This document shows positions 14,623-47,499 of a DNA stretch of 64,000 bases, one piece after another. The notes under the pieces were generated by a model, which had not been told where the DNA came from, did no database searches, and worked only from the letters and a program-made list of their open reading frames with translations. This DNA is from Auricularia sp. M13 (lineage: Eukaryota; Basidiomycota; Agaricomycetes; Auriculariales; Auriculariaceae), in the NCBI GenBank assembly GCA_037042915.1, contig CM073198.1, positions 372,001-436,000 of the forward strand, given 5' to 3'. A program made the position numbers and the translations under genes. The first letter of the stretch is position 1. Each line of letters begins with the position of its first letter.

Positions 14623-17600
14623 ATGTCGCGTGCGACGGGCCTGGCGATTGCGGTGCAAACTGCAGACATTGCTGGACTTCGGGTGGCGCGCTCGCTGCTC
14701 GGTGTCGCCCAGGTTATCGCTGAGGACGCGAGGGTACGGTCAAGCTTTCCTCTTGGCATCTTATCTTATCAGTTGCCTCCTTAGAATGTTCGTGTGAACA
14801 AGGACGCGGCGATTGCGCTCTCGAGACGCGTGGACGAGCTCGTGGCTGCTATAAACACTGAGTTGGAGACTCGACTGCTGGCCGAGGGCTGGGAGGAGGT
14901 TTTGAATCGCTTTCTGGAGTGAGTGGTTAGGCTTTTTTTCGTATTTCTGTGCGAAGTTCTTAAAAATGCGTTGCAGTGTGTTATACGGTGTTCAGAGCCA
15001 CCTGAACGCCCAACAGCAACGAAGCTACCTTTCTCAGATACTATTCCAGGAGCGCGACTCGAATAGGCTCAAAGACCTCGCTCTGGCCGTTGACCAGGCA
15101 TTCTCAGCGTTCATGGTGAGCTACAAATATCGAGGCTATAGAGCGATGAGCGTAACGCATTCCAAGGTGGAGGTCCACATCCGGACACAAGACCTAGCAG
15201 AGGGCGTAACAAGCCCCCTCGAGAGCTCTCCTGTCCTTGAACGCTTGGATCGACAGATGAAGGAGCTCAATCGCTCGCCGCGTGAGGAGAGCGCGATCCC
15301 TTTCCACGCGTTGCCACCTCGGCCGGCGCTCTATTTCGGTCGAGGTCAAGAGACGGAGGCTATCGTTGCGGCATTGGGCAGGCCTGAGGCCGCCTACGTG
15401 GCTATTCTAGGCGGGCCAGGAATTGGAAAGACGTCTCTCGCTCTCACGGCTCTGCACGACAACACAATGGAGCAGCGCTTCCAGTCGAACCGGTTCTTCG
15501 TACCCTGCGACGGCGCTCAGGGACCTTCGGGCGCCCTGAGTGTCATTTCGGCTGCGTTTGGTTTTCACAGTGCTAAACAAAAGACTCTGGAGCAGAAGTT
15601 GACTACCTTTCTGGGGGCGGTGCCGTCATTGCTTGTCCTGGACAACTTCGAGTCCGCATGGGAAGCTCCGGAGAACCGGTCCCACGCCGAAGCGATTCTT
15701 CATATGCTCTGTCGAATCCCGTCCTTGTCTCTGATTATTACTCTGCGTGGTGCCGAGCGCCCGGCAGGAGTCGCCTGGACGCGCCCGTTCCTCCCGACCC
15801 TGTCTCCACTCAGCACCGAAGCTGGTCGACATGTGTTCTACTCCGTCTCCGGCATGGATGACGACCAATCTCCAATCGACGACCTGCTACAGCAGGCGGA
15901 GAACGTTCCTCTCGCAATCGTCCTCCTGGCCAACCTTGCGCAGTATGAGTCGTCCTCCATATTGATGACGCGGTGGAACGAGCTCAGAACTTCGATGCTT
16001 ACGCGCGGCGACGTTCCGCATCGCCTGAGCAATCTGGATGTGTCCATATCGCTGTCTCTCCATTCACCCCGAATGAGCGCCCATCCTGAGACCAAGCATT
16101 TGCTTAGTTTGCTGGCCCTGCTTCCCGACGGCGTCATGGATACGGACCTTCGCCTGTGGGGGAGCAGCTTCGCGCCCGCGCTCTCCACCTTATTGCAGAA
16201 CACATTAGCGTATCGCACGCTTAGCGGACGTGTACGAGTGCTGACTCCTATCCGGGAGTTCATGCTGCTTCATCATGCGCCGGATGAGGCTCTCTCATCG
16301 AGCGTCTATGAGCATTACTTTCGGCTTTCGGACCAGCTACTACGTGCTGACGCGCCAAGCGCGGAACCCGAGGCGGTGGCTACAATTACTCTTGAGATTC
16401 GCAACATCGAATCGGTGATTCACTTCAGCCTCGAACACAGCAACAACATCAGACCTGCAGTTGAGGCGGCTATCAGCGTCTGCCACATCTTCGACGCTAC
16501 AGGGCTGGGCTCGGCGGACATCCTGCAGCCTGCACTGCAGGCCGCGCGTGTCGCTTCCATGAGCGATCTTGTTGCGCACTTGCTTCGTGTTTGGGGAAGT
16601 CTATGTTCTAAGACTGCAGTTCCCGGCGATACGCCTTCAGTGTTACGAGAAGCACTGGCCATTTACGAATCTCTGGGCGACGGCAACGGTCTCATCGACA
16701 CCACGGTCATGCTCGAGCCGTATCAAGGTCCGGCAGAAGCCATTCGATCCTGTAAGGCGATGCTGGAGCTCGCAACTGCGCGCACCGACGCTTACCGCAT
16801 GGCGCGCTGCTATCATCGTCTTGCCCAAGCTTACCAACGGCTTGGAGACACGGATGCGTCGCGCTTGAGCCTGGAGAACGCTCTCAGTACTATGCTTGGC
16901 GCGGAAAAGCCCGACTATGGCCTCGTTGGCTTGTACTTGGTGCGGCTTGCCGAGAACGACCTGGACGCTGGCAGAGTACTTCTCGGAGTCAACCGGCTGC
17001 GCGAAGCGCTTCCCATGCTTCACAAATCGCACAATATTCTTCGGATCGGTGACGCTGAGCATCTGCTTGGTAGCGCGCTCCTCGATCAAGGAGATGCTAA
17101 AGCAGCCATCGAGCATCTGCGACTGGCTTTGGACGCCGTACGCATTGGTGGCTACTTTACGCCCCAGGTCATGTGCCTCACCAAGCTCATCCGAGCCTAC
17201 ATCGCTGCATGCCAAGAGTCCGAGGCTGCGGACACAATTGTCGTCACCGATGCCTTGATTCGAAGTACTCCGGGGGACTGGAGGTATAGCCGCTGTGAGC
17301 TGCTGCGTGCTCACGGAGAACTGGCGCTATATCGCGGAGACGTGAAAGCAGCATACGCCGCACTCGTCGCTGCGAGAGCCGAGAGTCTAGGATTGGATCC
17401 CGTTGCAGTGCCAGAGTACATGCGCTATCTGTTCGCAGGAGTGCTAGAGTATCTGGGGAAAGCAGCGCTTGCGGACGGTTGCATGGAGGAGGCGCGCAAC
17501 AGCTTGCTGTGCTCTGCGTTGCTATTTTCAAAATTGGATTACCGTACACCTACGGTTACATCTCTATGCGGACTGGTATACGCTTTAGACGACGACGTGG

Positions 17601-17815
17601 CCGAAGCGTTGTTAGCTGCTATAATGCTTCCCGTTCACCGATTTGGGTATCGGAGGCTCTTGGGAGACTTATTGCTGCTGTCAGCAGGTATAGCAGCGCG
17701 TAGAGCTAACTTACCCCTAGCCGCACACCGTGCGTCTTGTGCTATGGCACATTACCAAAATACTGGCGATGCGCGCGGTTGCGACAGGGTAAATTCGTTC
17801 TTGGACGGCCTATAG
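14623..17815 (+). CDS. NLR-A: four-helix (MLKL/HeLo-like) + NB-ARC-like NTPase + TPR protein
   Basis: Four exons (14623-14733, 14785-14918, 14977-15115, 15167-17815) give 1010 aa. Residues 1-128 form a predicted helical bundle of the MLKL N-terminal/HeLo-like type, including the conserved RSYLSQILFQERD. The NTPase has Walker A GGPGIGKTS (210-218), Walker B LLVLDNFES, the sensor-like LIITLRGAERP and a GLPL-like NVPLAIVLL. The second half is alpha-helical with TPR-like repeats (ARCYHRLAQAYQRLGDTDAS and others). Known proteins of this plan act as intracellular sensors whose oligomerised NTPase exposes a membrane-active N-terminal domain, in incompatibility or immunity. Two paralogues follow at 26742-29930 and 44282-47499. 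The start is the first ATG of an exon matched in both paralogues. Ligand unknown. Confidence 0.9.
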
Positions 17816-47200: not shown

Positions 47201-47499
47201 TAGCGAATCGCCATGTTGGCCTGGTCAACACGACTCTACGTTCATTGAGTTCTCTGGCTCAAGTTGTTGACGACGATTTGTCACAGGTGATAATGGCGGC
47301 AATATTTGCCCCTTTAGTTCGCCTGAACTTCCGCTACAACCTCGGGGACCTTTTATTCTATTCGGCTACTGTCGCCAAGCGGGCCAACCAGCGTGCTCTT
47401 GCGCGACACCGGGCTGGGAGCGCTCTGAAGCACTTTGAGGAGGCAGGCAACAAACGAAAATGTGACATCGTGCGGGAGTTCCTGCAGAAATGTATATGA
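44282..47499 (+). CDS. NLR-C: four-helix (MLKL/HeLo-like) + NB-ARC-like NTPase + TPR protein
   Basis: Four exons (44282-44392, 44442-44584, 44633-44771, 44827-47499) close to 1021 aa. Residues 1-131 form the N-terminal helical domain (FGVAHLIAECAR/NIKVNKSSALRLARRVDEFV and NRSYLSQILHQERD). The NTPase has Walker A GGPGMGKTS (218-226), LLILDNFES, IVVTLRGTERP and NVPLALVLM. The second half is TPR-like (ARCDQALGHVYERMGDRHTA and others). Intron 1 uses a weak donor (GTTGGC at 44393); retention would bring stop codons, so splicing there decides whether full protein is made. A MITE lies in the promoter. Confidence 0.9.

What the first reader, a model, noticed from the sequence alone, without database searches (positions are those of the whole stretch)
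14623..47499. Cluster of three NLR-type genes with MLKL/HeLo-like N-termini
NLR-A (14623-17815), NLR-B (29930-26742) and NLR-C (44282-47499) share a helical N-terminal domain, an NB-ARC-like NTPase (GGPGxGKTS, DNFES, TLRGxERP, NVPLA) and TPR-like tails, yet are clearly diverged in their second halves. Fungal NLRs with HeLo-type domains trigger regulated cell death in incompatibility, and MLKL-like domains are membrane executioners. Three full-length, apparently intact copies in alternating orientation within 33 kb suggest a locus expanding by duplication and diversifying in recognition. The role here is inference.
Basis: partly seen in the sequence, partly recalled or inferred. Interest (0 to 1): 0.85.

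Follow-up and report, generated by a model that had tools for sequence, protein, structure and literature searches.

The report
Fungal immune receptors carrying MLKL-like domains
Three neighbouring genes in a relative of jelly fungi encode immune-type receptors whose front end is related to MLKL, the protein that bursts animal cells in necroptosis; the kind is already known in fungi, but these three belong to a large family and have kept that front end unusually unchanged.

Summary
Genes A (14623-17815 +), B (29930-26742 -) and C (44282-47499 +) are stop-free four-exon genes for proteins of 1010, 1011 and 1021 residues: an N-terminal helical bundle, an NB-ARC/Apaf-1-type NTPase and a TPR tail. 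The MLKL guess is right: Pfam MLKL_N matches C and B above its cut-off and A below it, and a profile of 15 family members finds MLKL in the PDB (best E 1.8e-9). A young, diversifying trio is not supported. The genome holds 41 family loci, fragments included, 14 within 526 kb around the window. B and C have 71% and 68% identical relatives in Auricularia subglabra on what looks like one contig, with the neighbouring dioxygenase. A, B and C are old lineages that do not group together. They keep the MLKL-like domain unusually constrained relative to the NTPase (0.74 against 1.73 in 15 other own genes). Most likely these are all-in-one death-inducing NLRs of the published basidiomycete MLKL-like kind (PMC9815663): new members of a known kind. 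Cell killing and ligand are untested.

The parts
14623..17815 (+). NLR-A, four exons: 14623-14733, 14785-14918, 14977-15115, 15167-17815; 1010 residues
   Evidence: splice check
14623..15115 (+). NLR-A exons 1-3: MLKL-like helical bundle (about residues 1-128)
   Evidence: Pfam MLKL_N E 0.0023, 17.9 bits, under the cut-off of 27
15326..16372 (+). NLR-A NB-ARC-type NTPase (bounds approximate); P-loop GGPG codons start at 15410
   Evidence: nSTAND1 6.9e-9 over the cut-off; NACHT 8.4e-5 and NB-ARC 8.5e-4 under it
16373..17812 (+). NLR-A TPR tail
   Evidence: TPR_12 4.1e-8, TPR_8 1.4e-7
26742..29930 (-). NLR-B, four exons: 29930-29820, 29763-29618, 29568-29430, 29381-26742; 1011 residues
29430..29930 (-). 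NLR-B exons 1-3: MLKL-like helical bundle
   Evidence: Pfam MLKL_N E 2.4e-6, 27.6 bits, over the cut-off
28173..29219 (-). NLR-B NB-ARC-type NTPase (bounds approximate); P-loop GGPG codons start at 29135
   Evidence: nSTAND1 1.7e-7 and NB-ARC 2.4e-5, both over the cut-off
26745..28172 (-). NLR-B TPR tail
   Evidence: TPR_12 5.1e-8
44282..47499 (+). NLR-C, four exons: 44282-44392, 44442-44584, 44633-44771, 44827-47499; 1021 residues
44282..44771 (+). NLR-C exons 1-3: MLKL-like helical bundle
   Evidence: Pfam MLKL_N E 8.2e-9, 35.6 bits, over the cut-off
45001..46047 (+). NLR-C NB-ARC-type NTPase (bounds approximate); P-loop GGPG codons start at 45085
   Evidence: nSTAND1 1e-6, NACHT 2.7e-6, NB-ARC 2.3e-5, all over the cut-off
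46048..47496 (+). NLR-C TPR tail
   Evidence: TPR_12 6e-10; TPR_MalT 1.1e-7, under its cut-off
47602..48822 (+). TauD/gamma-butyrobetaine-hydroxylase-type dioxygenase next to NLR-C, used as synteny marker and rate yardstick
   Evidence: Pfam TauD 5.4e-47; 78% identical A. subglabra proteins on contigs of 153,088 and of 600,899 bases

Best explanation
A, B and C are 'all-in-one' NLR receptors of the basidiomycete MLKL-like (BaMLKL) kind. At rest the NB-ARC module holds ADP and the TPR superhelix keeps the protein closed. When the TPR part binds a non-self or damage ligand, nucleotide exchange lets several copies assemble. The clustered MLKL-like bundles then expose their hydrophobic, low-charge N-terminal helix, insert into the membrane and kill the cell or hyphal compartment. 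Shown here: gene structure, sequence homology of the bundle to MLKL, predicted fold of a close relative, Apaf-1/NB-ARC-type NTPase, TPR tail, family size, and conservation of B and C. Inferred from relatives: nucleotide switch, assembly, membrane attack, cell death. The ligand is unknown. A, B and C look like long-kept members rather than the fast-changing part of the family.
Against: No activity data. A's bundle is below Pfam's cut-off. The fold comparison barely tested residues 1-177, and helix 2-17 has pLDDT about 50. The extra helix in front of the MLKL-homologous helix may alter or block pore formation; PMC9815663 leaves cell-death activity open for the related Goodbye-like extension (passage). 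No close solo bundle protein was found (0 of 6029 candidates at E <= 0.001).
Confidence: 0.72

Rival explanations
1. Allorecognition (het-type) locus: the three genes are polymorphic incompatibility genes, and the cluster grows and diversifies in recognition. This concerns the role; it could be true together with the mechanism above.
For: NLRs and a smaller group of MLKL-related proteins act as het genes in ascomycetes (PMC12881547, passages). PMC4986451 reports diversifying selection on TPR parts of Podospora NLRs (passages). Fourteen family loci lie within 526 kb.
Against: A, B and C do not group together. B and C have 71% and 68% identical A. subglabra relatives sharing a contig length. No tandem repeats in the three genes, though PMC4986451 finds high internal repeat conservation in only 21.2% of TPR repeats (passage). 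[quoted passage not shown] No population data.
Confidence: 0.15
2. The bundle is a signalling or assembly module, not a pore: it recruits a downstream executioner.
For: The extra N-terminal helix in front of the MLKL-like core. The genome holds an MLKL-like bundle next to protein kinase exons elsewhere (L037), a possible separate executioner.
Against: The bundle is recognisably MLKL by sequence. The first helix stretch is hydrophobic and poor in charge. The linker between bundle and NTPase, where a signalling motif might sit, is the least conserved stretch in 8 of the 12 pairs; no amyloid-motif model was run.
Confidence: 0.2
3. Non-immune STAND regulators: scaffold or transcriptional regulators of the MalT type whose bundle is only a dimerisation element.
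Against: MLKL homology at the N-terminus. Large, clustered multigene family with incomplete copies, the pattern of receptor repertoires.
Confidence: 0.08

Closest known systems
BaMLKL (basidiomycotal MLKL-like) NLRs, PMC9815663 (passages; section 13)
   Same: MLKL-like bundle with one extra helix in front and a short helix before the last long one, followed by a NOD module; BaMLKL with NACHT-TPR is reported there for Fibularhizoctonia.
   Different: Here the NTPase compares best with Apaf-1/NB-ARC. The passages seen do not mention this Auriculariales family, its cluster or its conserved members; supplements were not read.
Animal MLKL (necroptosis executioner)
   Same: Sequence-level homology of the bundle and helix order.
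   Different: MLKL has a brace and pseudokinase (general knowledge) where these have NB-ARC and TPR; the match starts about 20 residues into the fungal proteins.
Plant CC-NLRs (NRC1, NRC2, ZAR1)
   Different: TPR instead of LRR tail (plant tail from general knowledge); among the 25 PDB sequences that the bundle profile finds at E <= 10 none is named as a plant NLR.
Fungal HeLo/HELL NLRs and HET-S/NWD2 (PMC12881547; PMC10197012; passages)
   Same: Bundle-type death domain on, or under control of, an NLR; 'all-in-one' NLRs are named in the 2025 review.
   Different: The Pfam hit here is MLKL_N; HeLo and Helo_like_N are not among the hits shown.
STAND protein with TPR sensor, 6mfv
   Different: The aligned range starts at model residue 174, so the bundle is not part of the match.

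Membership tests
BaMLKL-type fungal NLR | MLKL-like N-terminal bundle detectable by profile | tested here: met
   MLKL_N over the cut-off in C and B, under it in A; of 19 own-genome bundles scanned one by one, 18 match at E <= 1 and 6 exceed the cut-off; MLKL in PDB, best E 1.8e-9
BaMLKL-type fungal NLR | Extra N-terminal helix and a short helix between helices 3 and 4 | tested here: met
   AF2 of P0004, a 68% identical relative of C: helices 2-17 (pLDDT about 50) and 102-107; A and B were not folded
BaMLKL-type fungal NLR | Central NACHT/NB-ARC-class NTPase with P-loop | tested here: met
   GGPGxGKTS in all three
BaMLKL-type fungal NLR | C-terminal superstructure-forming repeats | tested here: met
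   TPR in all three and a TPR superhelix in the P0004 model
BaMLKL-type fungal NLR | Cell-death activity | not testable with these tools
   needs expression
MLKL (4HB-brace-pseudokinase protein) | 4HB domain homologous to MLKL | tested here: met
MLKL (4HB-brace-pseudokinase protein) | C-terminal (pseudo)kinase | tested here: not met
   NTPase and TPR follow instead; no kinase family among the Pfam hits
MLKL (4HB-brace-pseudokinase protein) | Same fold of the isolated bundle as MLKL by structure comparison | tested here: inconclusive
   whole-model comparison barely tests residues 1-177
HeLo / HELL domain proteins | Match to Pfam HeLo or Helo_like_N | tested here: inconclusive
   not among hits at E <= 10 for A, B, C or at E <= 1 for 16 other own bundles; HMMER filters drop weak hits and the annotations overlap (PMC9815663)
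Allorecognition (het) gene | Polymorphism and incompatibility phenotype | not testable with these tools
   needs population and crossing data
Rapidly evolving repeat NLR (high internal repeat conservation) | Near-identical repeats in the C-terminal part | tested here: not met
   no tandem repeat row inside the three genes (which misses copies under about 70% alike)

The most novel reading that the evidence does not exclude
The window locus encodes conserved executioner or helper NLRs of a fungal receptor network. Many paralogues act as sensors whose own MLKL-like domain is less constrained, while a few old genes (A, B, C and perhaps C1:4116k) keep a fully constrained MLKL-like domain and deliver the death signal, a fungal counterpart of the plant NRC helper/sensor network. 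Basis: terminal-branch 4HB:NTPase ratio 0.74 for A, B, C against 1.73 for 15 other own genes, with 3 to 13 of 816 gene triples as low in six settings.
Probability: 0.1. Interest if true: 0.85.

Novelty: new member of a known kind. Interest (0 to 1): 0.42.

Why it matters
Basidiomycete NLRs are numerous (a mean of 83 per genome, PMC10197012, passage) but poorly described (PMC9815663, passage), and somatic incompatibility in this phylum remains poorly understood (start of abstract of PMC8229728). This locus offers well-defined genes whose front domain is recognisably MLKL by sequence, with conserved relatives in an annotated species. That makes a direct test possible: does an MLKL-type domain act as the built-in executioner of a fungal receptor, and do the conserved members serve the rest of the family?

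Tried and rejected
Young tandem expansion: rejected for A, B, C. Repeat-driven diversification of the TPR part: no tandem repeats in the genes. Positive selection: whole-gene NG86 omega was 0.22 for L012-L015, 0.28 for L018-L024 and 0.23 for L018-L030. The domain split for the two L018 pairs is wrong, because L018's P-loop was not recognised, so only the whole-gene values are used. The L015-L016 bundle value there (0.99) is an artefact of an incomplete L016 model, whose N-terminus one search showed to be complete; I do not use it. Omega was not measured for A, B, C: no relatives were at hand as DNA, and the three are only 41-43% identical.

Helper/sensor by clade: the expanded clade against the rest gave 4HB:NB ratios of 1.89 and 1.71, with ratio-of-ratios 0.90-1.44 in 20 bootstraps: no clear difference. 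With database proteins added it was 1.84 and 1.45, without bootstrap. Pair ratios: B 0.92, C 0.65, C1:4116k 0.86, A-P0012 0.99; pairs holding another own member 1.22-3.65; of six pairs made of database proteins alone, three are low (0.67, 0.95, 1.08) and three high (1.55, 2.06, 2.10). The A/B/C test was run after one search had shown these values, so it is not blind. It uses 18 own genes; left out are L016 (near-copy), L019, L021a, L021b and the partial or doubtful models L020, L022, L023, L025-L028, L031, L034-L036. Closeness to the MLKL profile does not follow the split: A is below the cut-off while L006 of the expanded clade scores highest of the 19, so loss of MLKL character in presumed sensors is not shown. 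L029 had no MLKL_N hit.

Solo executioner proteins: none found; PMC9815663 reports hundreds in basidiomycetes (passage), so this search was probably limited by its word filter. Phage collection: no match. NCBIfam: none for A's long reading frame. phmmer of A alone against the PDB found nothing at E <= 1; only the profile did. Pfam MLKL_N on the whole genome found only the L037 exon, probably because the domain is split over three exons. No MLKL row appears among the 50 shown; that part of the model was barely tested. Literature searches; 'BaMLKL' is in one paper of that library. The one paper holding all terms has 'helper' only in its reference list, so I saw no printed helper/sensor scheme for fungal NLRs in these searches. 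PMC8229728 (passages) showed no candidate NLR genes.

Full report
What is there. The window is C6:372001-436000 of a 52.1-Mb, 14-contig genome. Its closest named relatives in the protein database are Auriculariales: Auricularia subglabra, Exidia glandulosa and Auriculariales sp. MPI-PUGE-AT-0066; the species itself was not identified. A splice-aware alignment of B's protein to A's DNA gave back A's exon 2 and 3 boundaries. Exon 3 is 139 nt in A, B and C, and a 139-nt exon occurs in 12 of 30 other modelled loci.

The family. A's long reading frame finds 48 matches in the genome (48 of 55 candidates scored, a lower bound), which I merged by hand into 41 loci, short fragments and distant relatives included (list). 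Fourteen lie in one 526-kb stretch of C6 that includes the window; 41 random positions never put more than 8 into such a stretch in 2000 trials. Of 33 loci modelled (A, B, C and 30 others), 21 give complete stop-free bundle-NTPase-TPR readings: A, B, C, 17 of the models, and L016. I leave out L034, which passes the rule but has an implausibly shredded first exon. The other 12 are partial, lack exon 1, have that shredded exon or hold a stop. Two more fetched loci, L038 and L039, are incomplete; six were not modelled.

Age and conservation. In an 82-row tree A, B and C do not group together, though deep branches are weakly supported. B pairs with A. subglabra P0003 (support 100), and these two with P0007 (95). 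C pairs with P0004 and a metagenome protein (100). A sits with Exidia P0010/P0012 and own C1:6743k (87, below the starred level). B is 71% identical to P0003 and C 68% to P0004; none of A's 120 listed homologues exceeds 43%. In Exidia, the A-like P0012 and the dioxygenase P0123 share contig length 137,663. So the locus looks old; contig identity is inferred from length only, and a second 78% A. subglabra dioxygenase (P0121) lies on a contig of another length. Between B and P0003 the bundle, NTPase and TPR are 68, 71 and 70% identical; between C and P0004 77, 70 and 64%. The younger paralogues L012-L015 show omega 0.30, 0.15 and 0.19 for the three parts.

A constraint specific to these three. 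On a fixed tree of 41 sequences, the terminal-branch ratio bundle:NTPase is 0.89, 0.66 and 0.46 for A, B and C, pooled 0.74, against 1.73 for 15 other own genes. All 20 column bootstraps keep the order, and 3 of 816 own-gene triples are as low. Six settings that varied reference, columns, exon 1, model and topology gave 3, 3, 3, 4, 13 and 10 of 816. Against this: a clade-level version showed no clear difference, the test followed a look at pair ratios, C1:4116k and C3:3990k are also low (0.95 and 0.94), closeness to the MLKL profile does not follow the split, and models of other members are automatic. I read it as real but modest evidence that the MLKL-like domain does more work in these genes than in most of the family.

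Mechanism and place in the literature. PMC9815663 (passages; section 13) describes 600 basidiomycete MLKL-like NLR sequences, their extra helix and BaMLKL-NACHT-TPR architectures. PMC12881547 (passages) names 'all-in-one' HeLo/HELL NLRs and bundle-kinase proteins. PMC10197012 (passages) gives a mean of 83 NLRs per basidiomycete genome. PMC4986451 (passages) covers fungal TPR-NLRs, their internally conserved repeats and diversifying selection in Podospora. The present genes fit that known kind. The nucleotide switch, assembly and membrane attack are inferred from Apaf-1, plant NLRs and MLKL (general knowledge). The ligand is unknown.

Noticed in passing
L037 (C1:5833500-5837500, - strand): An MLKL_N bundle (6.6e-11, 42.3 bits, the highest score of the own-genome bundles scanned here) lies directly upstream of protein kinase exons (PK_Tyr_Ser-Thr 3.5e-8 and 4.5e-10): the animal MLKL layout in the same fungus. 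Bundle-kinase proteins are named in PMC12881547 (passage).
   Followed up: partly
L015 (C1:4859k) and L016 (C1:829k): Two family members 4 Mb apart on C1 share 6220 aligned bases at 95.4% DNA identity, in opposite orientation, plus 624 bases at 92.3%, flanks included (N-terminus of L016): a recent dispersed duplication.
   Followed up: partly
L026 (C10:1024k) and L027 (C10:757k): Two partial family members share 4432 and 1767 aligned bases at 95.5% and 95.9% DNA identity.
   Followed up: no
L038 (C6:1809500-1813500): Bundle exons followed by a TPR end with no NTPase match between: an internally shortened or decayed copy.
   Followed up: partly
window 11711-12766 +: Ferric-reductase-like transmembrane domain (Ferric_reduct 1.3e-6) upstream of NLR-A.
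   Followed up: no
window 30277-30936 -: Serine carboxypeptidase piece (Peptidase_S10 1.7e-17) just upstream of NLR-B.
   Followed up: no
window 55231-56643 -: F-box protein (F-box-like 7.3e-7); an A. subglabra NLR model with the contig length 153,088 (P0007) also carries an F-box domain, perhaps a fused gene model.
   Followed up: no
window 18184-18510 +: Reading frame with a GxGxxG-like dinucleotide-binding stretch by eye, possibly a flavin monooxygenase; the motif is recalled and was not tested.
   Followed up: no
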